Shown here: positions 1,309 through 21,440 of the stretch, piece after piece | Position numbering within the stretch: position 1 is the first letter of the stretch | How the letters are laid out: each line of letters begins with the position of its first letter | IMG/VR virus record: IMGVR_UViG_3300031227_000300 | Coordinates: 1-28,574 of that record | Strand: one strand, 5' to 3' | From: a virus | Length of the DNA stretch: 28,574 nt | Translations under genes and position numbers: made by a program | The notes under the pieces: model-generated | Database searches by the model: none | What the model was told of the DNA's origin: nothing | Seen by the model: the letters and a program-made list of their open reading frames with translations, nothing else

Positions 1309-4300
1309 TGGCTGATTTAATTAATGAAGACCTTGAGCCAACAGAAGAAGAGCGCGACACCAGCAGCTTAGATAAACAAAATGAACTGTACGCAAGCTTT
1401 GGTTCTAAACAAGAGCGCGGCTTTGTTCCTTTAGTATCTAATGCACCCGACCCACAGCTGAAGGGTTCTTTGTGGCAAGCAAACTTTGCAGAGACAACAG
1501 CTATCGGCGCGTTTATGAACTCAACGAGCGCCAAGGACTTAGAAGCAGGTAAGCCACTGCCTACGCTTGAACAGCAGATATCCCACATACCTTTGGCCAA
1601 TATTAATAATGCAGATGCGTACATAGGTAAGGACATTAAAGACTATCCCTTGGTTACTGAGTCGTTAAACAAAGAAGCTCAACGCAAACAGCTTATAGCC
1701 AACCGTCCCTTTTCATCCTTTGCCATTGGTATTGTTGAGCAGGGCGCGCTTGAGCCAATCAACTGGCTGCCATTTGGTGAAGCATTTAGCACGGCAAAAA
1801 AATCCTCAAGCTTGGCTCGGGCTATCGTAGGCTCAGGAGCCACAGGTATTGCCGCCGGCATTGCTCAAGAAGGAATCATTACACGTAATGAACTCAGTCG
1901 AACAGCTGAAGAGAGCGCTTACAATATCTTAACAAACGGAATTCTTGGTGCAACACTTGGTGGCATTGGTCAAGGCGTTACCACACGCGGGCGTGTTAAA
2001 AACATTGAGCAGCGCCAGGCTCGTATGGCTTTAGGTAAAGAGGTTAAAGATGTTTACATGGATACCTTTCAAGAGCTTACGCCAGAAGGTACATTGAAAG
2101 ATGATGCCATTGCAAAGCTAAATCCAACGCTACAAAAAGCCATGCTATCTACTAGCATGAATAGGTTGGTAAGAAGTGAGTACGGCTTTAGTAAATGGTT
2201 TTCAAGCCAGATGTACGACAACAATTATACGCTAAACAAAAATCTTAACGGTGAAATCAAAGACCAATCCGTAGAATTAAAAATAAGAACTGACCGCAGG
2301 AAGTTAGATAAGACTCTAATTGATTATGATAACACCTACTACGACAGTATTGGCATTAAGCCAGGGCCGTTTGTTGGTACTCGCGCCAAGATAGAAGGTA
2401 ACAACGCGGCAACTAAAGAGGCGTTCGACGCTGAGGTGTGGAAAGTATTATCAACAGATATTCCTAGTGAAAATTCACATGTAAATTCTAACGCCAAGCT
2501 GATGCGCGACAATGTGTTTGACCCGTTCAAGCAAAGACTGATTGACATTGGGCAGCTGCCAGAAGAGTTTAAATTGCGTAACGCTACTAACTATGTAATG
2601 TCTTTGTACAATAAAGATAAGATTATCGAGCAAGGTGGTCGCAGTGCACGCGGTGATAACACATTACCTGGCACCTTGCATCGTGGGTTCAAGGACGTAC
2701 AAAATCAAGTACGTATTTTTAAAGAGTCACCAGGATTTAAAGTAATTGAAGCGGGCATTAGTAATGCTAAGGAACGTCTTAAAGGCCCAACGTTTGAAGA
2801 ACGCAAAGCTATCGACAAAAGAATAACGCCCCTTAATAAAAAAATACGTGAGCTTGACAGAGCTAAAACAACTCGCCCGCAAGAAGACATTAAAAAAATT
2901 AATGAATCAGTTCGCGAAGCTCAAAGCGAAGGCCGACAAGCTAAGGCTGACACAAAGACAGTACAAAAAGAATTTGAAGCTGGGTTTACTAGCGAGATTA
3001 AATCTTTTAAAGATGAGCTTGTTTCTACTGAAAAGAAAATAGCGCCGATTACTTTAGACATAAAAAAAGTTGAGACCAAACGTCAAAAATTTCGTGAGCG
3101 AAAATTAGTCTTACAGGAAAGAATTAAGTCTAAAGGTGAGGCATCAAAAACTTACGCTGCAATTAAATCAGAGCTAGATAAAATTCCTTCTGTAATAGCT
3201 GAGTTAGATAAGAACATTGCCGGATTAAAATCAAAACGCGACGGTGTGCAACCAAGTATCTCAAGCATCAAGGCCGACATTAAGCGCATCCAAGGGCTTA
3301 AGAAGCAAGAAGCGCCTAGCATTCCTGGCTTAAAAGAAAAAATTATAGCTTCAGAAAAGAAAGTTAAAGAGCTAAACGAAAGCAAAAAGCCAACGCGCGA
3401 AGAAGCCAACGAGTTTATTAAGCGCATTAAAGATATTAAAGAAACCATTAAACGTCTTGAAGAAGATAAGTTGCTACCAAAAGAGCTTAAGGCTGAGCTT
3501 GAATCAACAATTGAAAACTTTGAGCAGGAATTAAAAGACACGACACCCCCACACCTTTTAGATTCTAAAGGTGAGTTCTGGCCTATGCTTGATGATGATG
3601 CTTTGTGGGGACGCGTTGAACAAACGATTGATAACATCTTAGGCGATACTGAGGGCAAGTTAGTTAATCCAATCCTGCAAAGAATTAAAAGCATTGGGGC
3701 CTCACCTCTCAAGCACAGAAAGATTGTGGTTGAACAGCTTAAACTTCAAGAGTGGCAATCAACAGACGTGCCTAAGATAGCAGAAGTTTATTTAAAAGCC
3801 GTGTCGCCACTGGTTCACATGAATGAATTCGCAATCAAGCATGGCGCTGAAGATATCAACGACTTTAAATCCATGTTGGAAAAAGGAATCACCGAAGAGT
3901 TTAATAAAAAATCTGAAGGCAAGACAGGCAAGGAAGCCCAGCGTTTGCGCACCATGAGGGACAGAGACTTTGCAGACATGACCGCAACGCTTGAGTTAAT
4001 CGAAGGCGTGTATGGTGACGGCCCTAATGTTTTAAATAACTCAGCTCGAACGTTCTGGGAAAATTGGCTCAAGTGGACATCAACCAGGATGCTAGGGTTT
4101 ATGACCATGAGTTCATTTCCCGATGCTGGGCTTCAAGTCTTTACGCATGGTTACTATAGGTTTATGCATGACGGGATTATGCGTGCAACTTCTGAAGCTC
4201 GAAGCATTGCTAAGCGCGACCTCCAGGGGATAGGCTACGCGGTCAATACTATTCTAGGCTCACGCCTTGCATCATACGCAGACACCGCAGGCTTGAGCGT

Positions 4301-5300
4301 TAACCCTGGCCCCTTCACTAAAGGTATGGATGTTCTTACACAGAAGTTTGGTAACTTGTCTTTGATGAATCCATGGAATGATATGATGGAAGCTATCGCA
4401 GGGCACATAGGTATCAACCGAACATTACAAACGGTCCACTCAGTTGTTAATGGTGAGCGTGTATCTCAAAAAGAAATCTTGAGGCTTAACAAGCTTGGGC
4501 TTGAGACAAAAAACTTTGACACCATCTATGAGTTTACAAAAGATAACCAAGATACAGATGGTGCTTTGTTTGCTGACTGGGGTAACTGGGATATTAAATC
4601 CAAAGACCAGGCCGAAGCATTGGCACAGTTCCAGCGTAGTGTAGCTAAAGAGATTGAAGAGATTGTTATTCTTCCAGGGCTTGGAGACAAACCGTTAGCA
4701 GCACACGCCCAGTTTGCAGGCGCACCACTTGGCAAGATGTTGTTTCAATTTAAAACATTTTTAATGGCAGCAACCAATAGAGTTATGGTGCCAGCAATTC
4801 AAAACCGTGGCGCAGCCGAAACTTACCAAGGAATTACGGTTATGCTTGCCTTAGGTTCACTTAGTTACATGTCCACGTCATTGGTTAAAGGTAAAGAGAT
4901 AGACTTTTCTTTTGATAAGATGGCTCATGAATCTATTGACCGTAGTGGACTACTTGGAATCTATGGTGAGATGCTTAATATAGGTTCTAAATTAACCGGC
5001 GTTGGAGTGCCGACACGGTATCAATCCCGTGATAAACTCGGAGCTATGTTAGGGCCATCCGCCGGTTCATTTAGTGAGATAGCTAACGTCCTACAAAACA
5101 TTGCTAGCGTAGCCACAGGGAAGAAAGAAGACGTAACAGAAAAAGACCTCGATAAATTCATGAGGCTTTTCCCGTTACAGAATCTTGCAACATCATTAGA
5201 GATACCTAAGAAACTTATCAAGGGTGGGCTTGCTAAGCTGGGCGGCATTGAAACTCCTGAGATGGATGAGGAATTAAAACGGCTGCACACATCAAAATAA
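1308..5300 (+). CDS. large internal virion protein, T7 gp16-like
   Basis: This 1330-residue protein is close in length to T7 gp16 (1318 residues), which leaves the capsid and helps form the DNA ejection channel across the host envelope. The start ATG overlaps the preceding stop, with AGGGG about 10 nt upstream. A small-residue-rich, potentially membrane-active stretch lies at about residues 168-225 and a hydrophobic segment at about 1175-1195. Residues ~480-745 are a long charged Lys/Glu coiled-coil region. The C-terminal ~200 residues ('QFKTFLMAA', 'FPLQN') have the style of gp16 tails. It sits just before the tail fibre gene, as in T7. No lytic transglycosylase motif was recognised at the N-terminus, unlike T7 gp16, so that activity may be in another protein or absent. 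Confidence 0.75.
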   Translation: MADLINEDLEPTEEERDTSSLDKQNELYASFGSKQERGFVPLVSNAPDPQLKGSLWQANFAETTAIGAFMNSTSAKDLEAGKPLPTLEQQISHIPLANINNADAYIGKDIKDYPLVTESLNKEAQRKQLIANRPFSSFAIGIVEQGALEPINWLPFGEAFSTAKKSSSLARAIVGSGATGIAAGIAQEGIITRNELSRTAEESAYNILTNGILGATLGGIGQGVTTRGRVKNIEQRQARMALGKEVKDVYMDTFQELTPEGTLKDDAIAKLNPTLQKAMLSTSMNRLVRSEYGFSKWFSSQMYDNNYTLNKNLNGEIKDQSVELKIRTDRRKLDKTLIDYDNTYYDSIGIKPGPFVGTRAKIEGNNAATKEAFDAEVWKVLSTDIPSENSHVNSNAKLMRDNVFDPFKQRLIDIGQLPEEFKLRNATNYVMSLYNKDKIIEQGGRSARGDNTLPGTLHRGFKDVQNQVRIFKESPGFKVIEAGISNAKERLKGPTFEERKAIDKRITPLNKKIRELDRAKTTRPQEDIKKINESVREAQSEGRQAKADTKTVQKEFEAGFTSEIKSFKDELVSTEKKIAPITLDIKKVETKRQKFRERKLVLQERIKSKGEASKTYAAIKSELDKIPSVIAELDKNIAGLKSKRDGVQPSISSIKADIKRIQGLKKQEAPSIPGLKEKIIASEKKVKELNESKKPTREEANEFIKRIKDIKETIKRLEEDKLLPKELKAELESTIENFEQELKDTTPPHLLDSKGEFWPMLDDDALWGRVEQTIDNILGDTEGKLVNPILQRIKSIGASPLKHRKIVVEQLKLQEWQSTDVPKIAEVYLKAVSPLVHMNEFAIKHGAEDINDFKSMLEKGITEEFNKKSEGKTGKEAQRLRTMRDRDFADMTATLELIEGVYGDGPNVLNNSARTFWENWLKWTSTRMLGFMTMSSFPDAGLQVFTHGYYRFMHDGIMRATSEARSIAKRDLQGIGYAVNTILGSRLASYADTAGLSVNPGPFTKGMDVLTQKFGNLSLMNPWNDMMEAIAGHIGINRTLQTVHSVVNGERVSQKEILRLNKLGLETKNFDTIYEFTKDNQDTDGALFADWGNWDIKSKDQAEALAQFQRSVAKEIEEIVILPGLGDKPLAAHAQFAGAPLGKMLFQFKTFLMAATNRVMVPAIQNRGAAETYQGITVMLALGSLSYMSTSLVKGKEIDFSFDKMAHESIDRSGLLGIYGEMLNIGSKLTGVGVPTRYQSRDKLGAMLGPSAGSFSEIANVLQNIASVATGKKEDVTEKDLDKFMRLFPLQNLATSLEIPKKLIKGGLAKLGGIETPEMDEELKRLHTSK

Positions 5301-9830: not shown

Positions 9831-9885
9831 AATGAAAGACAAAAAAGCTAAGCCTGCACCTGTAAAAAAAAGTGGTAAGAAATAA
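9820..9885 (+). CDS. tiny lysine-rich peptide
   Basis: A 21-residue frame with GAGG about 8 nt upstream of the ATG. It overlaps the preceding gene by 11 nt and its stop overlaps the endolysin ATG (TAATG). Nine of 21 residues are Lys, with no acidic residue after position 7. It may serve mainly to couple translation into the endolysin, or be a real basic peptide. The ribosome binding site and exact tiling support it; size keeps confidence moderate. Confidence 0.45.
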   Translation: MPNKMKDKKAKPAPVKKSGKK

Positions 9886-12900: not shown

Positions 12901-12935
12901 AATCAAACCTCTTTGAATTCTGTATCGCTAATACC
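12893..12935. repeat. 8-bp inverted repeat across the terminase gene junction
   Basis: GGTATTAG (12893-12900, containing the large terminase stop) and CTAATACC (12928-12935, inside the 3' end of the opposing gene) are perfect inverse copies with a 27-nt loop. There is no T-run on either side, so a factor-independent terminator is doubtful. It is the only structure seen at the convergent junction. Confidence 0.4.
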
Positions 12936-13445
12936 CGAATCACTTGCAGCTTCAACAGCTTTGAGTCGGTCTTCGAACTCTGTATGCTCCTGGACTTTAA
13001 CCACAGTTTCAATCAAGCGTGACATCTGAGTAGCCTCCACAGATGTAAGCTCTCCCTTCTCAACTGCTTTAAGTATTGCATCGAGCTTATCATTAGCGCT
13101 CTTTGCTTCAGCCAGCTGGGCTATCTTGATGCGCCTCTGTTGCGGCAAGTTGAACCGAGTATTCATAGTTCGATTATACAAGCCAAGGTTTAAGCGAGCG
13201 CCTTCGTGCTCTTCGATCATGTATGTTCTGCCAAGCTTCAAGTAGTATGATTTAGCTTTCATTTTTGCAGCTTCATAAGCGGCGGCAAAGTCTGGCTTTG
13301 ATTCAATCCACTTAAAGAATGTTGTTTCTGATATATCATGGTCGGCACAAAACTCTTCCATTGTCTCGCCACTCTCGAAACGCCTGGGTAATTCTGCAAC
13401 CATAGACTGCTTGAAGGGGCTTTCATTCTTCCAACTAGTAGCCAT
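12903..13445 (-). CDS. probable terminase small subunit, on the opposite strand
   Basis: 180 residues from the ATG at 13445. Longer in-frame starts are less likely because the promoter candidate lies at 13480-13488. Residues 28-48 form a helix-turn-helix ('TMEEFCADHDISETTFFKWI') of the kind used by small terminases to bind packaging sites. It is followed by an 'AKSYYLKLGRTYM' segment, typical of this family, and a C-terminal helical part (~110-165) suited to oligomerisation. It converges on the large terminase gene with a 2-nt gap. This layout is unusual, since the two subunits normally lie head to tail. An alternative is a phage DNA-binding regulator that occupies this place. Confidence 0.72.
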   Translation of the reverse strand: MATSWKNESPFKQSMVAELPRRFESGETMEEFCADHDISETTFFKWIESKPDFAAAYEAAKMKAKSYYLKLGRTYMIEEHEGARLNLGLYNRTMNTRFNLPQQRRIKIAQLAEAKSANDKLDAILKAVEKGELTSVEATQMSRLIETVVKVQEHTEFEDRLKAVEAASDSGISDTEFKEV

Positions 13446-13479
13446 TGACACACCCCGTTCCTTAATATCTATACCAATA

Positions 13480-13488
13480 ATCATACCA
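13480..13488 (-). promoter_or_regulatory. extended -10 promoter for the leftward small terminase
   Basis: On the minus strand the sequence reads TGGTATGAT, an extended -10 with one mismatch in TATAAT. Transcription would begin near 13473, giving a leader of about 28 nt. The -35 is poor. It implies expression independent of the late rightward operon. Confidence 0.5.
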
Positions 13489-13551
13489 CACTTAGCTTTA
13501 ACTTTACATATACACATGAAACTTTAACTCAACAATAAATAAAATTACCCC

Positions 13552-15608: not shown

Positions 15609-15740
15609 ATGAGTGCAAAGGTAACTAAAGTATTAACAGGAAATAAGGGATGTAAAGACAAAGCCGAACGGGTTGCCACCCATGTGTTCGGCTTTAAAAA
15701 CGTAGGACTTAACTACAGGAGTAGTATACCTAATGGCTAA
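15609..15740 (+). CDS. possible 43-residue leader ORF before the winged-helix gene
   Basis: An ATG frame that ends 8 nt inside the winged-helix gene, encoding a basic peptide ('SAKVTKVLTGNKGCKDKAER' start). The ribosome binding site is weak (AGGG 11 nt upstream). A strong hairpin (15660-15695) lies inside it. It may be a true small gene or a leader whose translation affects the hairpin; it may also be fortuitous. Confidence 0.3.
   Translation: MSAKVTKVLTGNKGCKDKAERVATHVFGFKNVGLNYRSSIPNG
15660..15695. other. strong RNA hairpin upstream of the winged-helix gene
   Basis: AAAGCCGAAC (15660-15669) and GTTCGGCTTT (15686-15695) form a perfect 10-bp stem. Inside it, GGGT-TGCC-ACCC (15670-15681) can form an apical 4-bp stem with tetraloop, leaving a 4-nt bulge. 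There is no good U-run after it on the plus strand. It lies about 38 nt before the winged-helix ATG. It could be a terminator-like attenuator, a processing site or a protein-binding RNA. Confidence 0.6.
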
Positions 15741-16035
15741 CAACAATTGCAACGCTGAGTATGATCAAATTCCACGCATAGTTACAGAGCACCCAAAACT
15801 AACCCTTGCCGACTGGGGTGTCATGATATGCATATACCGAGTCTTAAAAGATAAACCAATAATTATTTATTCTAACGAAGCGCTAGCAATTAAGTGTCAG
15901 GTTTCTATAAAAACAATAGAGAGACAGATGTGCAAGTTAAGAAAACTTGGCTTCTTAATATGCACTGGCCGTGGATACAATAGGCGTATTTTACTGGGCA
16001 GATTGTTCCACACAACCCTCACTGGTGAGGGATAG
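15733..16035 (+). CDS. winged-helix replication initiator-like protein
   Basis: 100 residues; ACAGGAG lies 11 nt before the ATG. Residues ~22-80 match the helix-turn-helix type found at the N-terminus of lambda O-like initiators: 'LTLADWGVMICIYRVL', 'YSNEALAIKCQVSIKTIERQ', 'LRKLGFLICTGRGYNRRILL'. The last residues (FHTTLTGEG) are encoded by the first copy of a palindromic DNA repeat. If the TAG is ignored, the same frame reads on for 22 codons and encodes a second copy (FHTTLTGEA), so the gene may once have been longer. Lambda O also carries its iterons inside its gene. A role in origin recognition is inferred; a small regulator is the alternative. Confidence 0.65.
   Translation: MANNNCNAEYDQIPRIVTEHPKLTLADWGVMICIYRVLKDKPIIIYSNEALAIKCQVSIKTIERQMCKLRKLGFLICTGRGYNRRILLGRLFHTTLTGEG
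16009..16031 (+). repeat. palindromic iteron-like repeat, copy 1
   Basis: A CACACAA lead followed by the perfect dyad CCCTCACTGGTGAGGG. It codes for the C-terminus of the winged-helix protein. Lambda O iterons are likewise short repeats with CCCTC...GAGGG dyad symmetry located inside the initiator gene. Confidence 0.8.
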
Positions 16036-16318: not shown

Positions 16319-16597
16319 TTAGTGTCTCGGCTCTCTAGCACTGTACTGGTCGCTTACTTTTTTTCCTGTATTCTCGCAGTACTTTTTAGTGTACTTAATT
16401 ATTCCAAGATTTACTAAAATGCTTCTAGCCCTATAAAGCATTGCTAATGATACTCCTAGCGCACAACTTAAATCCTGGGCTGATATTGTTAGCTCACCAG
16501 AATCGCCAGTTGTTTCAATTATTCCAGTCAAGTACATGTACAAATACTTTGCTTTAATTTCTATTGTCTTATCTTTTAACACGCATGTTTCGTACAA
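16319..16597 (-). CDS. winged-helix DNA-binding protein
   Basis: 92 residues from TTG at 16597, which has GAGG 9 nt upstream; a GTG at 16606 adds 3 residues but overlaps that ribosome binding site, so the start is uncertain. Residues ~34-75 form a helix-turn-helix ('LTISAQDLSCALGVSLAMLY', 'RARSILVNLGIIKYTKK'). It resembles replication or transcription regulators of phages and plasmids. It is last in the leftward operon that begins with the Cro-like repressor, and it converges on the candidate origin. It may bind there or regulate early genes. Confidence 0.55.
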   Translation of the reverse strand: MYETCVLKDKTIEIKAKYLYMYLTGIIETTGDSGELTISAQDLSCALGVSLAMLYRARSILVNLGIIKYTKKYCENTGKKVSDQYSAREPRH

Positions 16598-16653
16598 TTT
16601 AATCACCCTCTTAGTTTTGTGCTACACTAACCAAGTCGTTTCTCCTGGGCGAC

Positions 16654-17139: not shown

Positions 17140-18018
17140 ATGAAATTTGTATACAATAACGGAATTCACAGCATTAGTAACGAGTCTTATCATGCCAGCG
17201 AGGGTGTATCTCGCAGTCAATTGATGGACTTAAGCAGAACGCCAGCGCACTTTTATCACAAGCATTTGAACCCTAACTACGTCAAGCCAGCAACGCCCCC
17301 TGCTTTTTTACTGGGCAGCATGGTTCACACAATGACCCTTGAGCCTCACCTTTTCAATCATGAGTACATGATCAAGCCAGAGCTTGCACCTATGCCACCA
17401 GCACTCAGGCTTAAAGATGTCGGGCGCACACTGTTTGAAGTAAATAAATATGAGCGCGACACGATAGCTATAGCCAACGAAAAACTAATGGCAGACTTTC
17501 AATTGATGTCGGCTAACAAACAAGTCATTACCAACAGCATGTACGAGCAAGCATCTGCTATGCGTGATGCGGTATGGGGTGACAGCACAGCTCAGGAGCT
17601 TGTTAACAGCGGCCTGGTTGAGCGCTCTATATACTTTGAAGATAAGGCAACGGGTATACAAATGAAGGCCCGTCCGGACATCATGGTAGGCCCTATCGGT
17701 ATTGATTTAAAAACTACAGTTGACGGCAGCCCTCGCGCTTTCAGCCATAGCGCATCAAACTATGGTTACTATGAGCAAGCAGCGTTTTGTCATAAAGCCA
17801 TGGCATCAATTGGCGTAGAGATGGAAGGCTTTATCTTTGTGTGTGTTGAGAAGACTGAACCTTATTGCATTTCAATACATGAACTTGATGCCGAGGCTAT
17901 TGACTACGGAATAGAGCTAGTTGATGACCTGATGCTTAAACTTAAAGACTGCTTGAACTCTAACGCCTGGCCGTCATACCCTTTACAAGAACTCAGCGTA
18001 CCTGGATGGGCTAAATAA
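17140..18018 (+). CDS. RecE/exonuclease VIII-type PD-(D/E)XK nuclease
   Basis: 292 residues with GGAG before the ATG. It fits the phage exonuclease VIII-like family (DUF3799, PDDEXK fold). Seen are an N-terminal 'YHASEGVSRSQLMDLSRTPA', 'LLGSMVHTMTLEP' with H63, and the catalytic 'KARPDIM...GIDLKTT' (D180, D189-x-K191). 'YGYYEQAAFCHKAM' corresponds to the family's QxxxY-type region. It would resect double-strand ends to make 3' single strands for the Bet protein encoded 200 bp downstream. It is first in the early operon under the repressor-controlled promoter. Confidence 0.88.
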   Translation: MKFVYNNGIHSISNESYHASEGVSRSQLMDLSRTPAHFYHKHLNPNYVKPATPPAFLLGSMVHTMTLEPHLFNHEYMIKPELAPMPPALRLKDVGRTLFEVNKYERDTIAIANEKLMADFQLMSANKQVITNSMYEQASAMRDAVWGDSTAQELVNSGLVERSIYFEDKATGIQMKARPDIMVGPIGIDLKTTVDGSPRAFSHSASNYGYYEQAAFCHKAMASIGVEMEGFIFVCVEKTEPYCISIHELDAEAIDYGIELVDDLMLKLKDCLNSNAWPSYPLQELSVPGWAK

Positions 18019-18233
18019 TGAGTGAGTTACTTGGTATACAAAAGTGGTGTGAGCGTTACAAAGAAAAAACTGGGAAAGAAATTCATGCCGAAGATGTCCC
18101 ATTAGCTTTAGCTCTTGAGGATGTAATGCAGGGCATGATGGCATTAACGGCCAGCGTTGAGTACATGCTTACTTTACAAAGAGCTATTGATAGCAGGGTT
18201 ACTACATTGGAGAAGCAAAATAATGAGCACTGA
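18018..18233 (+). CDS. small protein between exonuclease and annealing protein
   Basis: 71 residues, starting on the last base of the exonuclease stop (TAATG) and overlapping the Bet gene by 11 nt. The N-terminal half is charged; the C-terminal half is a likely coiled coil ('ASVEYMLTLQRAIDSRVTTL'). Its location suggests a partner of the recombination pair, but no family is recognised. Confidence 0.6.
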   Translation: MSELLGIQKWCERYKEKTGKEIHAEDVPLALALEDVMQGMMALTASVEYMLTLQRAIDSRVTTLEKQNNEH

Positions 18234-19041
18234 TTTAATAATGTGGGAAGATAAAGAGAAGCTTGCAGAGATACGAAAGCTATTTGCACCTAAGTTATCC
18301 GATAGCGAGTTCCAATTCTTTGTTGGGCTAGGTAAGGCGGCACAACTTAACCCGTTCACCAGGGAAATTTGGAGCGTTAAGTACCAAGACAGTGCGCCAG
18401 CCCAGGTGTTCATTGGCCGTGATGGATATAGAAAAGCTAGCCAGCGTGACAAAGACTATGACTTTCACCAAGTTGATGCAGTGTACTCCAATGATGAGTT
18501 TCAATTTGACGTTCGCGAAGGCTACCCAATTCATAAATATAATATGAAAGACCGTGGAGAATTGATTGGGGCTTACTGTATCGCTAAGCGCAAAGGTTCT
18601 AACCGACCGACGTACACCTGGGTAAAGTTATCTGAGTATTCAACAGGTAAAAGTCTATGGAATCCTAACACCGGCAAGCCTGAGACAATGATTAAAAAGG
18701 TGGCTGAGTCTCAAGGGTTACGTGCAACCTTTCAAGATTTATTGGGCGGCACTTACGCTGAAGAAGAAGTTCCACAACGCATGGCACAAGCGCCAGCTAC
18801 TAAAGAATCCCTCATGGATAAAATCAAACAAGCCAAGGGTGTAGTGGTTGAAGCGGAGACCGGCGAACTTGCAGGCGATAAATCACTAGAAGACATTGAG
18901 TTTCTAATTGCCGTCAAAGACTTTGATGCGGATAGAACGAAGAAAGCGTTGGCTCACTATAAAGTTGATGCCATGGAGCAGCTTACACAAGTACAAGCAG
19001 ATAGTTTTATTAATGAACTGAAAAAACTAGAGGACGTGTAA
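18223..19041 (+). CDS. bet: phage recombination protein Bet (RecT superfamily annealase)
   Basis: 272 residues from the ATG at 18223; an upstream in-frame ATG at 18157 is rejected because it lies deep inside the previous gene, while GGAG precedes 18223. Residues ~10-190 match the lambda Bet family: 'EFQFFVGLGKAAQLNPFTRE', 'APAQVFIGRDGYRKASQRD', 'GAYCIAKRKGSNRPTYTWV', 'MIKKVAESQGLRATF'. Bet coats 3' overhangs and anneals complementary strands. With the RecE-type nuclease and RusA it forms a complete recombination set, useful for concatemer formation. The C-terminal ~80 residues are a more variable acidic helical tail that usually contacts SSB. Confidence 0.93.
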   Translation: MSTDLIMWEDKEKLAEIRKLFAPKLSDSEFQFFVGLGKAAQLNPFTREIWSVKYQDSAPAQVFIGRDGYRKASQRDKDYDFHQVDAVYSNDEFQFDVREGYPIHKYNMKDRGELIGAYCIAKRKGSNRPTYTWVKLSEYSTGKSLWNPNTGKPETMIKKVAESQGLRATFQDLLGGTYAEEEVPQRMAQAPATKESLMDKIKQAKGVVVEAETGELAGDKSLEDIEFLIAVKDFDADRTKKALAHYKVDAMEQLTQVQADSFINELKKLEDV

Positions 19042-19139
19042 TGGCTAAGAGCAAAGGGAAGCTTGCGGAACCGGACTGGAAAGAAAAACTTAGGAAGCTT
19101 ATCGAGCGACTTAAAAAAAACAAGGAAGCAACGGCATGA
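19041..19139 (+). CDS. 32-residue lysine-rich helical peptide
   Basis: ATG overlaps the Bet stop (TAATG); GAGGACG upstream serves as ribosome binding site. The peptide has eleven Lys and a helix of basic and Leu/Ile residues ('WKEKLRKLIERLKKNK'). It may bind nucleic acid or a Bet partner. The next gene overlaps by 4 nt. Tiling is the main support. Confidence 0.45.
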   Translation: MAKSKGKLAEPDWKEKLRKLIERLKKNKEATA

Positions 19140-19258
19140 TATGCATGGCCCATTGGCACTTGGCGTTTATAACAATCACGGGGATATTGTTTGGTATCTC
19201 CCTTGGTGCGTCGATTGCGGCTCACTATCAAATTAAAACCACCACAAGGATTAAGTAA
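19136..19258 (+). CDS. 40-residue single-TM peptide
   Basis: Starts within the previous stop (ATGA) and ends on the next ATG (TAATG). One hydrophobic segment at about residues 9-29 ('LAFITITGILFGISLGASIA') is followed by a basic tail. It sits just before a secreted peptide gene, forming an envelope-directed pair. AAGGAAG about 9 nt upstream can act as ribosome binding site. Confidence 0.5.
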   Translation: MICMAHWHLAFITITGILFGISLGASIAAHYQIKTTTRIK

Positions 19259-19386
19259 TGATGGCACGAATGATAGTACTGACAGCAATAGTATCTTTAA
19301 GCGCTCAAGTTTTTGCAGCAGATAACTGTCACTGGAAATGTAAAAGCACGCCCGTAGGCCAGCACTGCACGCGGGTGTGTAGCTAG
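19258..19386 (+). CDS. secreted cysteine-rich micropeptide
   Basis: 42 residues; AAGGA lies about 8 nt before the ATG. Residues 1-20 form a signal peptide (hydrophobic 'MIVLTAIVSLSA', cleavage after 'QVFA'). The mature ~22-residue part carries four Cys as two CX3C motifs spaced by eight residues ('CHWKC' and 'CTRVC'), the cysteine spacing of alpha-hairpinin-type disulfide peptides. It would be exported to the periplasm and oxidised. It is in the early operon just before CsrA, so it is made early rather than at lysis. Possible roles are superinfection exclusion or inhibition of an envelope enzyme; these are guesses. Confidence 0.6.
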   Translation: MMARMIVLTAIVSLSAQVFAADNCHWKCKSTPVGQHCTRVCS

Positions 19387-19387
19387 C

Positions 19388-19576
19388 ATGTTAATACTTA
19401 CAAGAAAAAAAGGTGAGCAGATTTTAATCGGCGATGACATTGTGATTACATTACTAGGCTCGGGTTCACACGGTGAGCACCGAGTTGGTATTGATGCGCC
19501 TAGAACAATTCCAGTTGTGAGAAAAGAGATTGCCTGGCAGTTTGACGATGATGGAAATAGGGTTAACGAAGAATGA
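19388..19576 (+). CDS. csrA: CsrA/RsmA-family RNA-binding regulator
   Basis: 62 residues, the same length as E. coli CsrA (61). It begins with the hallmark 'MLILTRKKGEQILIGDDI' and keeps 'VGIDAP' and 'VVRKEI'. R6 and R45 align with the RNA-contact residues R6 and R44 of CsrA (one residue is inserted near 25-30). CsrA dimers bind GGA-containing leaders and block or activate translation. A phage copy in the early operon could retune host metabolism or motility, or regulate phage mRNAs, most of which have GGA in their ribosome binding sites. The start is 2 nt after the preceding stop. Confidence 0.93.
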   Translation: MLILTRKKGEQILIGDDIVITLLGSGSHGEHRVGIDAPRTIPVVRKEIAWQFDDDGNRVNEE

Positions 19577-19809
19577 AGCACTACAACATAGGCGATATGG
19601 CTTGGTGGATTGATTACAAAAAAGGGGATTTATGTGTCAGGAGCGGGCGCGTATATAAACTTGAGTTAACATCAGTTTGGCTGCGGAAAAAAGTGTTTGT
19701 GTTTGTGTGGCCTTATGAATTTCAAGTTGATAAAGATTGCGTGTTTGACTCAAAGAGTGAAGCGATAAATCATGCGATAGTGAGACTGGAGATGTTAAGA
19801 CATGATTGA
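19573..19809 (+). CDS. hypothetical beta-rich protein
   Basis: 78 residues, overlapping the CsrA stop (ATGA). The layout suggests a small beta barrel ('YNIGDMAWWIDYKKGDL', 'VYKLELTSVWLRKKVFVFVW') with a C-terminal helix ('SKSEAINHAIVRLEML'). It resembles small phage proteins of unknown role. No catalytic motif is visible. It may partner CsrA, judged only from coupling. Confidence 0.55.
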   Translation: MKHYNIGDMAWWIDYKKGDLCVRSGRVYKLELTSVWLRKKVFVFVWPYEFQVDKDCVFDSKSEAINHAIVRLEMLRHD

Positions 19810-20107
19810 CATTGAGACAAAAGAAATACTAAGAAAGTTTGCTGGTATCGCCGAAAGATATGTGGTTATTCAAGAGAAACATTACAAACTCATTAGCGAT
19901 CCTGGGTTTGTTGCTAGCGAGCCCAAATCATCTTGCTGTTCAGTTCATGCCGGTACAAGTGAAGAATGCAAAGAAGAATGCGAGCATGAGAGTGAAGGCA
20001 AGTCGTACGTGAAATATGACAAAGAGTTTCGGCTTGAGACTTCAGGGCCGAACCCTGGTATTGAGCGAGCAAGTAAATGCAAAAAATGCGGGGAGTTTTA
20101 CAGATGA
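19802..20107 (+). CDS. cysteine-rich protein with C-terminal zinc knuckle, member A
   Basis: 101 residues, overlapping its neighbours by 8 and 4 nt. The middle has 'SSCCSVH' and 'ECKEECEH', and the end is 'CKKCGEFYR', a CxxCGE-type zinc half-site. The next gene ends in a very similar 'CAHCGELFK', so the two are probably diverged relatives. A role in nucleic-acid or protein binding is likely for such knuckles. No full family assignment is possible. Confidence 0.6.
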   Translation: MIDIETKEILRKFAGIAERYVVIQEKHYKLISDPGFVASEPKSSCCSVHAGTSEECKEECEHESEGKSYVKYDKEFRLETSGPNPGIERASKCKKCGEFYR

Positions 20108-20376
20108 AAGCAATGATATCTATTAACGAAGATTGTTTAAACGAATACATCGACAAACGACTTGAGATGTTTAACTTAATACCTAAGCCCGGTGGAGTAA
20201 AATGCAATCACGTATCGCAAACGCCTGATTCAAAATGTCGCATTCACATGTGTGTTAAATGCATGGAAGAATACGTTGTGGACTGCAAACACAAAGCATC
20301 CGCAGAGAATGTTGTGCATACATATCAAGGCTACATGATGTATACATGTGCTCATTGTGGCGAGTTGTTTAAGTGA
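20104..20376 (+). CDS. cysteine-rich protein with C-terminal zinc knuckle, member B
   Basis: 90 residues from the ATG at 20104 (ATGA overlap); an earlier in-frame ATG at 20077 lies within the previous gene and is less likely. Cys pairs include 'KCNHV', 'MCVKCMEEY', 'DCKHK' and the terminal 'CAHCGELF', enough for two zinc sites. The ending matches its upstream neighbour, suggesting duplication. The stop overlaps the lipoprotein GTG start. Confidence 0.6.
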   Translation: MKAMISINEDCLNEYIDKRLEMFNLIPKPGGVKCNHVSQTPDSKCRIHMCVKCMEEYVVDCKHKASAENVVHTYQGYMMYTCAHCGELFK

Positions 20377-20654
20377 GGCTATTAATCGCTGTTATTGTTA
20401 CTTGTTTAATTACCGGTTGCGACGGTGGTATGCCACCAGCCCCAGTTAAGGTTGTTGATGAGCAAGAAAGACAACAAAAAGATGACGGCGGCGGCATGAT
20501 GGAACACATGGCGGGCGCAGCGGTTGCAGGGGCAGCGGCAGGCACGGCGGGCGCAGTTGCGCATCGAGCCACTGACCATTTAATTAACAAGCATCAACAG
20601 CGCAAGGCACGTAGACAAACACGGCCACGTGTTTACAATGCACGAAGAAGATAA
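20373..20654 (+). CDS. lipoprotein with glycine-zipper segment
   Basis: 93 residues, starting with GTG that overlaps the previous stop (GTGA). Residues 1-16 are a lipoprotein signal ending in the lipobox 'ITGC' (C16). Asp at +2 would keep it in the inner membrane under the Lol rule of enteric bacteria. Residues ~46-65 are Gly/Ala zipper-like ('AGAAVAGAAAGTAGAVAH'), able to pack in a membrane, and the C-terminus is very basic. It is in the early operon, so superinfection exclusion is more likely than a spanin role; an o-spanin is the alternative, although it lies far from the endolysin gene. Confidence 0.7.
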   Translation: MRLLIAVIVTCLITGCDGGMPPAPVKVVDEQERQQKDDGGGMMEHMAGAAVAGAAAGTAGAVAHRATDHLINKHQQRKARRQTRPRVYNARRR

Positions 20655-20666
20655 CCAAGGATGATC

Positions 20667-20864
20667 ATGACAGAAACAAAAAAGAAAATTGCAGTGTCGG
20701 CTAGTTGTAGGGATGGCAAGCATAGATTCACAGTCACGCGCTGGAACACAGCAGGCATAAGACGGGAAGCCGTTGAGATGAGATGTCAGTACTGTTTGTA
20801 TCCTATCGATATGCAACAGCTGGCAATGAAAGAATTTAGAGAAGCTGAAGGCATGGATTCGTAG
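20667..20864 (+). CDS. hypothetical small protein with two cysteine sites
   Basis: 65 residues from the ATG at 20667, chosen because AAGGA is 5 nt upstream; the ATG at 20661 overlaps that site. The sequence has 'SASCRDGKH' and 'MRCQYCLYPI', which can form a CxxC-type zinc site with the earlier Cys/His. Unrecognised. It is the third consecutive Cys-bearing soluble protein or lipoprotein neighbour in this operon. Confidence 0.55.
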   Translation: MTETKKKIAVSASCRDGKHRFTVTRWNTAGIRREAVEMRCQYCLYPIDMQQLAMKEFREAEGMDS

Positions 20865-21019
20865 TGGCTAACTTGCGCGCTCGTATTGACAAGCTACATG
20901 ATGGATTGATTAGCAAAGTAACGAGCCGCTTGATCGTCACAAAAGACGATGAGGTTATTAAACAAAAAGTATTTGGTAACAACATGAACAAGGTGGTGAC
21001 AATTGTCGTTAGACTTTAG
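20864..21019 (+). CDS. 51-residue hypothetical protein
   Basis: GTG start overlapping the previous stop (TAGTG). The sequence is basic with alternating hydrophobic strands ('SKVTSRLIVTKDDEVIKQ' and 'KVVTIVVRL'). It overlaps the next gene by 17 nt. No family is seen. Coupling and the absence of an alternative gene here support it. Confidence 0.5.
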   Translation: MANLRARIDKLHDGLISKVTSRLIVTKDDEVIKQKVFGNNMNKVVTIVVRL

Positions 21020-21440
21020 GCCGGACAGGGATGTGTACGTTATTTTTCACGACGACACGCAGTACAGGTTTAGTAAATACATGACGGTGGGGTTCAAACA
21101 TGCATTTATTATTGAGCGAAGCGCACTAGGATGGATATGCTTTGATGCTTCACGTACAAATATTGCTGTTGATATATTACCAGCAGATTATTTTTCTGAG
21201 GTTATGCAGCATTTCCACGGCAAGCATAAAGGCGCAACTATTCTTCACCTCACAATTCAGCCAACGAATTCATCTAACTATCCTCGGCCTGGAATAATCA
21301 GTTGCGTTAGTTCTGTTCAATACTATCTGGGCATTTACTGGCCATGGATATTCACGCCGCACTCACTGTATACTAAGCTAAAGAATAAACCTCCAACACA
21401 TATCAAGGTGGACGATTATGTCGGGAAAATCAGCAGCTAG
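21003..21440 (+). CDS. conserved podophage-type protein upstream of the portal, possible papain-like fold
   Basis: 145 residues from TTG at 21003, which has AAGGTGG 6 nt upstream. The pattern 'KHAFIIERSALGWICFDASR' followed by 'GIISCVSSVQYYLGIYWPW' and 'FTPHSLYTKL' resembles small phage proteins often found before the portal gene. The His near residue 33 and the Cys in 'SCVSSVQ' could be the pair of a permuted NlpC/transglutaminase-like fold. This is a tentative reading. It overlaps the next gene by 23 nt and begins the virion module. Confidence 0.6.
   Translation: MSLDFRPDRDVYVIFHDDTQYRFSKYMTVGFKHAFIIERSALGWICFDASRTNIAVDILPADYFSEVMQHFHGKHKGATILHLTIQPTNSSNYPRPGIISCVSSVQYYLGIYWPWIFTPHSLYTKLKNKPPTHIKVDDYVGKISS

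What the first reader, a model, noticed from the sequence alone, without database searches (positions are those of the whole stretch)
19258..19386. Early secreted micropeptide with paired CX3C motifs
A clear signal peptide precedes a ~22-residue mature part with four Cys as CX3C-8-CX3C, the spacing of disulfide helical hairpins. Secreted disulfide peptides are unusual in early phage operons. It could block an envelope target, such as a receptor, a periplasmic enzyme or a competing phage's entry.
Basis: partly seen in the sequence, partly recalled or inferred. Interest (0 to 1): 0.7.

Follow-up and report, generated by a model that had tools for sequence, protein, structure and literature searches.

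The report
Phage secreted disulfide hairpin micropeptide
A phage carries a tiny gene for a 22-residue peptide that is probably exported from the bacterial cytoplasm and clamped by two disulfide bonds; a related phage carries a diverged version in the same place, which suggests a small envelope-acting tool of still untested function.

Summary
Window 19258-19386 (+) encodes 42 aa: a signal-peptide-like start (cleavage expected after A20) and a 22-residue mature part with C24-x3-C28-x8-C37-x3-C41. The ORF is packed between a 40-aa membrane-peptide gene (1-nt overlap) and a phage csrA gene (1-nt gap), with an AAGGA ribosome site. Family libraries and sequence searches found no homologue. Synteny did: a related phage contig (L238:4269-4412) has, in the matching accessory island, a coupled 47-aa ORF with a signal peptide and CX3C-x9-CX3C. 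Two such ORFs occur among 4594 short ORFs; shuffles give 0.034 per set. Best reading: an exported, two-disulfide beta-hairpin accessory peptide that binds an envelope protein, most likely for superinfection exclusion. Function is inferred. A CsrA-type site (ACAAGGAU) overlaps its ribosome site, so CsrA may control it.

The parts
19258..19386 (+). 42-aa ORF of the exported four-cysteine peptide (alternative start ATG at 19261)
19258..19317 (+). signal peptide, residues 1-20, expected cleavage after A20
   Evidence: inspection and home-made score; no SignalP
19318..19383 (+). mature part, 22 residues, C24-x3-C28-x8-C37-x3-C41; predicted strands 24-31 and 34-41
19244..19251 (+). ACAAGGAT: ribosome site of the peptide gene and match to the core of the CsrA SELEX consensus
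   Evidence: consensus from PMC7652899
19120..19126 (+). ACAAGGA at the ribosome site of the 40-aa gene
19041..19139 (+). 32-aa basic peptide ORF, first gene of the accessory island
19136..19258 (+). 40-aa hydrophobic (single-membrane-span-like) ORF, overlaps the peptide gene by 1 nt
19346..19380 (+). predicted RNA stem-loop whose 3' arm covers the only ribosome-site-like element (GGTG, 19374-19377) of csrA
   Evidence: (-22.5 kcal/mol for 19340-19420; 17 of 200 shuffles fold as well)
19388..19576 (+). phage csrA gene, 62 aa, starts 1 nt after the peptide stop codon
   Evidence: Pfam CsrA E 8.7e-19; PDB CsrA/RsmE chains
19573..20376 (+). rest of the accessory island: 78-aa, 101-aa (CCSVHAG protein shared with L035) and 90-aa Cys-rich genes
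20373..20654 (+). 93-aa lipoprotein-like gene (LITGC lipobox), last gene of the island
   Evidence: lipobox by inspection
17140..18018 (+). PDDEXK exonuclease (exonuclease VIII-like), start of the recombination operon
18223..19041 (+). RecT-like annealing protein, left border of the island
20661..20864 (+). 67-aa conserved gene, right border of the island in the relatives
21003..21440 (+). 145-aa conserved gene used to find L238
21684..23339 (+). portal / head-tail adaptor of a short-tailed phage
   Evidence: PHROG 332 E 1.5e-64

Best explanation
An accessory ('moron') gene in the recombination operon of a short-tailed phage makes a 42-aa precursor. The Sec pathway exports it, signal peptidase cuts after A20, and the periplasmic Dsb system oxidises the four cysteines to C24-C41 and C28-C37, giving a rigid 22-residue beta-hairpin. 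The hairpin binds an envelope protein of the infected cell, most likely to close the cell to further phages (superinfection exclusion) by acting on a receptor or entry factor from the periplasmic side. Shown directly: the ORF, its spacing and tight packing, and a second, diverged copy of the same design in a related phage. Inferred, with my probabilities: real translated gene 0.85; exported and oxidised 0.75; beta-hairpin rather than helical hairpin 0.65; binds an envelope target 0.5; that function is superinfection exclusion 0.35. Side inference: phage or host CsrA represses the gene at ACAAGGAU and, by translational coupling, csrA itself (0.3).
For: ORF, signal peptide and cysteines. Gene packing and ribosome site. 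Diverged copy in L238, a relative found through the 145-aa gene: 12 identical alignment columns, four Cys (the third one column off because of x8 against x9), last Cys one residue from the end, 4-nt overlap with the upstream gene. Rarity: 2 of 4594 real ORFs against 7 of 1,245,229 shuffled ORFs (206 sets). Hairpin: residues 13-42 model, strands 24-31 and 34-41, block pLDDT 91 and 90; in L238 the D35-K36-D37-G38 turn sits at the centre of the Cys pairs (28+46 = 32+42 = 74), a sequence favoured in type I plus G1-bulge hairpins (recalled). Precedents for small periplasmic phage exclusion proteins: Spackle, Llp and the Cor family, Rtp45, which forms a beta-sheet with LptD. The endolysin lies elsewhere (9885), which argues against a lysis part. 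The CsrA arrangement parallels iraD/ORF27 (PMC5574718, abstract and section 10 read).
Against: No functional evidence of any kind. No lipobox, unlike Llp, Cor and Rtp45. The full-length AlphaFold model is helix 4-30 plus 37-40 at pLDDT 69, in conflict with the truncated model; both are single-sequence models, and no scrambled control could be run. Codon usage is not gene-like. Only one relative; a sequence search with P0001 alone did not find it (0 of 12 records), so homology with L238 rests on position and cysteine pattern, and convergence is possible. Fold searches with the hairpin gave nothing significant. Mature charge differs (about +2 here, about -4 in L238, counted by hand), so a shared target is not obvious. 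Host and receptor are unknown.
Confidence: 0.35

Rival explanations
1. Same exported two-disulfide hairpin, but its job is to inhibit a periplasmic enzyme or envelope-assembly factor of the host (a protease, a peptidoglycan enzyme, or Lpt/Bam parts by strand addition) rather than to exclude other phages.
For: Spackle works by enzyme inhibition; Rtp45 forms a beta-sheet with LptD; thanatin, a beta-hairpin peptide, blocks LptA (abstract of PMC11573584 in the listing).
Against: No target identified; nothing in the sequence points to one.
Confidence: 0.25
2. The ORF is mainly a translational coupler or leader for csrA: CsrA binds the ACAAGGAU ribosome site, stops translation of the short ORF and thereby of csrA, whose own ribosome site is weak and lies in a stem; the peptide is secondary.
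For: Coupled arrangement, weak csrA ribosome site in the arm of a predicted stem, ACAAGGAT at the peptide's ribosome site, ACANGGA at csrA's own start in 6 of 11 csrA-bearing relatives, four of them near-identical; published case iraD/ORF27.
Against: L238 keeps the signal peptide and the four cysteines with no csrA next to it; ACANGGA is not enriched in the window (13 sites, 12.5 expected); the stem is not unusually stable (17 of 200 shuffles). A coupler needs no signal peptide or cysteines, so this can be an added layer but not the whole story.
Confidence: 0.12
3. Antimicrobial-type hairpin released at lysis that harms competing cells.
For: Two-disulfide beta-hairpins of 17-22 residues are a known antimicrobial class (PMC13001179, passages).
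Against: The relative's mature part is clearly acidic, so cationic membrane activity is not a shared feature; the gene sits with recombination genes, not lysis genes; the producing cell would expose its own membrane.
Confidence: 0.08
4. Cystine-stapled helical hairpin, with the same envelope-blocking role.
For: CX3C-x8-CX3C fits the alpha-hairpinin motif; the full-length model has helix through residue 30 and at 37-40.
Against: Truncated model is a beta-hairpin at much higher confidence; turn and beta-branched residues of the relative.
Confidence: 0.1
5. Chance ORF, not translated.
For: Codon usage not gene-like; gap-filling by chance 5.7%; no close homologue.
Against: Signal peptide plus paired CX3C together were never seen in 298,681 shuffled ORFs; the relative in the same island.
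Confidence: 0.1

Closest known systems
T4 Spackle (gp61.3), PMC7677548
   Same: early phage product, exported with cleaved signal, disulfide-bonded, acts in the periplasm in superinfection exclusion
   Different: 75 residues, helical bundle, one disulfide, inhibits the tail lysozyme; no sequence match seen
T5 Llp and the Cor family, PMC9586334
   Same: small periplasmic phage exclusion proteins with an internal disulfide
   Different: lipoproteins about three times larger; no lipobox here
Rtp45 of phage Rtp, PMC12685063
   Same: small exported phage protein that binds an outer-membrane complex from the periplasm, with a beta-sheet shared with LptD
   Different: lipid-anchored, about 6 kDa; here about 2.5 kDa (estimated from 22 residues), no anchor
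Two-disulfide beta-hairpin antimicrobial peptides (tachyplesin class), PMC13001179
   Same: short secreted hairpin with two disulfides; that tachyplesin also has CX3C pairs is recalled, not tested
   Different: animal peptides; strong positive charge not shared by the relative
Plant alpha-hairpinins, PMC11591084
   Same: CX3C-X4-20-CX3C and signal peptide
   Different: plant origin, helical; predicted fold here is a beta-hairpin

Membership tests
alpha-hairpinins | CX3C-X4-20-CX3C without CC next to it, plus signal peptide | tested here: met
   x8 here, x9 in L238; signal peptide by inspection
alpha-hairpinins | helix-loop-helix fold | tested here: inconclusive
   beta-hairpin (pLDDT about 90) against helix (pLDDT 69)
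beta-hairpin antimicrobial peptides | single beta-hairpin closed by disulfides | tested here: inconclusive
   predicted only; disulfides not testable here
beta-hairpin antimicrobial peptides | cationic mature peptide in the family | tested here: not met
   about +2 here, about -4 in L238, counted by hand
beta-hairpin antimicrobial peptides | kills microbes | not testable with these tools
   needs an assay
Llp/Cor/Rtp45 exclusion lipoproteins | lipobox and lipidated N-terminal cysteine | tested here: not met
   cleavage site AQVFA|AD, first Cys at mature position 4
Llp/Cor/Rtp45 exclusion lipoproteins | sequence relation to solved members | tested here: not met
   0 PDB chains at E up to 10 with P0001; two-row profile gave only weak, unrelated chains, best E 0.14
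Llp/Cor/Rtp45 exclusion lipoproteins | blocks adsorption of related phages | not testable with these tools
   needs an infection assay
Spackle | helical-bundle lysozyme inhibitor of about 75 residues | tested here: not met
   mature part 22 residues; no PHROG or PDB match
CsrA-regulated coupled short ORF (iraD/ORF27 type) | CsrA site over the short ORF's ribosome site, and coupling to a gene with a masked ribosome site | tested here: inconclusive
   sequence arrangement fits; site not enriched; binding and coupling not testable

The most novel reading that the evidence does not exclude
A new, fast-diverging class of phage microproteins: Sec-exported, unanchored, 22-26-residue two-disulfide beta-hairpins that reach their target by strand addition to an envelope machine such as LptA/LptD or an outer-membrane receptor, and that in this phage are held off by a phage-encoded CsrA acting on the peptide's own ribosome site.
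Probability: 0.12. Interest if true: 0.75.

Novelty: new variant of a known kind. Interest (0 to 1): 0.48.

Why it matters
If true, phages make genetically encoded disulfide hairpins of a size usually linked with host-defence peptides, and aim them at envelope proteins of their own host. Such hairpins would be very small natural leads to envelope targets, and the four-cysteine pattern plus position gives a way to find more of them, which plain sequence search misses (one search missed the relative that one search found).

Tried and rejected
Sequence homologues: none in phages, plasmids (two weak hits, E 3 and 7, under annotated larger genes), PDB, Pfam, PHROGs, PADLOC or NCBIfam (ExtJ E 0.096, far under its cut-off). 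Whole records of 44 relatives: one match with three stop codons inside, rejected. Profile-pattern scans of viral and genome contigs: 107 and 40 stretches matched a pattern, none confirmed; the patterns used fell mostly in the signal peptide, so these are weak tests. 369 genomes of the class of the Shewanella record: one match, antisense to a large gene. Two-row profile: 4 of 369 genomes at E up to 0.01, about what chance gives; two looked at (L250, L252) and rejected, L251 and L253 not looked at; 0 of 385 genomes of the class of the Bradyrhizobium record. P0002 from L238: one chance hit in phages under a tape-measure gene, none in plasmids. RecT in the 369 genomes: none at 1e-30, so the host stays unknown. 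Two more searches with island genes found nothing. Fold searches with the hairpin model: nothing significant in PDB or viral models. Lysis role considered and set aside because the endolysin lies at 9885. Literature: searches (1 paper, a conjugation review seen only in the listing; 15 and 0 papers; listing only) showed no phage-encoded exported hairpin micropeptide; nothing wider is claimed.

Full report
What is there. The window is the whole of a 28,574-base virus record of a short-tailed phage: portal or head-tail adaptor, major head protein, terminase, tail genes and endolysin. At 17140-19041 lie an exonuclease VIII-like nuclease and a RecT-like protein. From 19041 to 20654 follows a run of eight small genes, and from 20661 a block of genes shared with relatives leads to the portal. 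The finding's ORF, 19258-19386, is the third of the eight.

Is it a gene? For: its ATG overlaps the upstream stop by one base, its stop is one base from the csrA start, and AAGGA lies 7 nt before the ATG. The precursor has a short basic start, a hydrophobic core and an AQVFA|AD cleavage site; it is the only one of 236 ORFs of 30-110 aa in the window to reach the score threshold, and none of 298,681 shuffled ORFs combines such a start with paired CX3C (the threshold was set on this ORF's own score). Against: an equally good gap-filling ORF appears in 1138 of 20,000 shuffles, and codon usage is not gene-like.

Relatives. Family libraries and direct sequence searches found nothing. I then followed the neighbours. 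RecT, portal and csrA brought 44 loci. In these the stretch between the recombinase and the conserved 60-77-aa gene is a variable island: absent in L025 and L032, filled with other small genes in L002 and L030. A profile of the conserved 145-aa gene brought 18 more loci. One of them, L238, has at 4269-4412 a 47-aa ORF that starts inside the stop of the upstream gene and reads MMRYILLVLVICLVVMNVLYA|DDEYDDCTTKCHYDKDGNYICQVRCV (the cleavage mark is mine): signal peptide, CX3C-x9-CX3C, last Cys one residue from the end. It lies in the same kind of island, with one 59-aa gene between it and the conserved gene, and has no csrA next to it. Across 63 loci (some overlap or repeat each other), 4594 ORFs of 30-90 aa contain 3 with a C-terminal CX3C pair and 2 of these with a hydrophobic start, the window and L238; 206 shuffled sets gave 7 in 1,245,229 ORFs, 0.034 per set. 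The alignment has 12 identical columns, with the third cysteine one column off because of x8 against x9. The window peptide alone does not find L238 (0 of 12 records), so I call it a probable diverged homologue, with convergence possible; it also shows that the negative sequence searches above are weak evidence of absence.

Structure. AlphaFold on the whole precursor continues the signal helix to residue 30 (pLDDT 69). On residues 13-42 it gives strands 24-31 and 34-41 with block pLDDT 91 and 90. In that register C24 faces C41 and C28 faces C37. In L238 the centre of the cysteine pairs falls on D37 of D35-K36-D37-G38, a turn sequence favoured in beta-hairpins (recalled), with Y34 opposite Y40. 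Foldseek and VIA-align found nothing significant, as expected for so simple a shape.

How it probably works. The cell would export, cut and oxidise the peptide (established Sec, signal peptidase and Dsb pathways; inferred here). A rigid hairpin without an anchor acts by binding. Known phage proteins of this general kind in the periplasm serve superinfection exclusion: Spackle blocks the incoming tail lysozyme, Llp acts on FhuA and has an internal disulfide, like Cor, Rtp45 binds LptD partly by a shared beta-sheet. I put exclusion first (0.35) and inhibition of another envelope protein second (0.25). The acidic relative argues against a general membrane-active antimicrobial. The endolysin lies elsewhere.

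Link with CsrA. The downstream gene is a CsrA whose alignment to solved CsrA/RsmE chains keeps the N-terminal MLILTR and the arginine at position 45 (that such residues bind RNA is recalled). The SELEX consensus of CsrA is RUACARGGAUGU (PMC7652899, passages). The ribosome site of the peptide gene reads ACAAGGAU, that of the 40-aa gene ACAAGGA. Of 32 listed starts in the window, 3 have AAGGA within 20 nt, and the 2 preceded by AC are these two. In 6 of 11 csrA-bearing relatives (four near-identical) ACANGGA lies 14-15 nt before csrA itself; 5 have none within 300 nt. The window's csrA has only a weak GGTG in the arm of a predicted stem. This resembles iraD, which CsrA represses through a coupled 27-aa ORF (abstract and section 10 of PMC5574718). 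Against: ACANGGA is not enriched in the window (13, expected 12.5) and the stem is ordinary (17 of 200 shuffles). I give 0.3.

Known or new. Defining features of alpha-hairpinins, antimicrobial hairpins, Llp/Cor/Rtp45 and Spackle are each met only in part (see table), so it is not filed in any. It works most like a tiny, unanchored exclusion protein: a new variant of a known kind. Paper searches showed no phage-encoded exported two-disulfide hairpin micropeptide; only listings were read, and one search listed nothing.

Noticed in passing
window 19388-19576: Phage-encoded CsrA in a recombination operon; csrA also occurs in related phage contigs (L035, L038, L040-L042, L045 and others) and L232 has a CsrA-like ORF (564-749, by eye) near the same island.
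   Followed up: partly
window 19802-20107 and L035:408-728: Two phages share an otherwise unmatched protein with SCCSVHAG..EEC.EECEH and a C-terminal CKKCGEFYR (49% over 69 residues).
   Followed up: partly
L013:3285-4432 and L015:7599-8773: After RecT and an SSB-like gene (by eye), two phages carry a pair of larger ORFs with signal-peptide-like starts and no Pfam match.
   Followed up: partly
L021:8222-8719: Phage ORF with signal-like start and a CAP (cysteine-rich secretory) domain, E 3.4e-14, in the RecT region.
   Followed up: no
L018:2305-2703: 132-aa ORF with signal-like start and several cysteines downstream of a RecT relative; no Pfam match.
   Followed up: no
window 15733-16035 and 16319-16606: Two short ORFs on opposite strands both weakly resemble replication-initiation or helicase-loader proteins; perhaps remains of a replication module.
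   Followed up: no
window 20373-20654: 93-aa lipoprotein-like ORF with an Ala/Gly-rich stretch and a very basic C-terminus; another envelope candidate in the same island.
   Followed up: no
window 12903-13517 (-): Small-terminase-like gene on the strand opposite to the large terminase, directly behind it.
   Followed up: no
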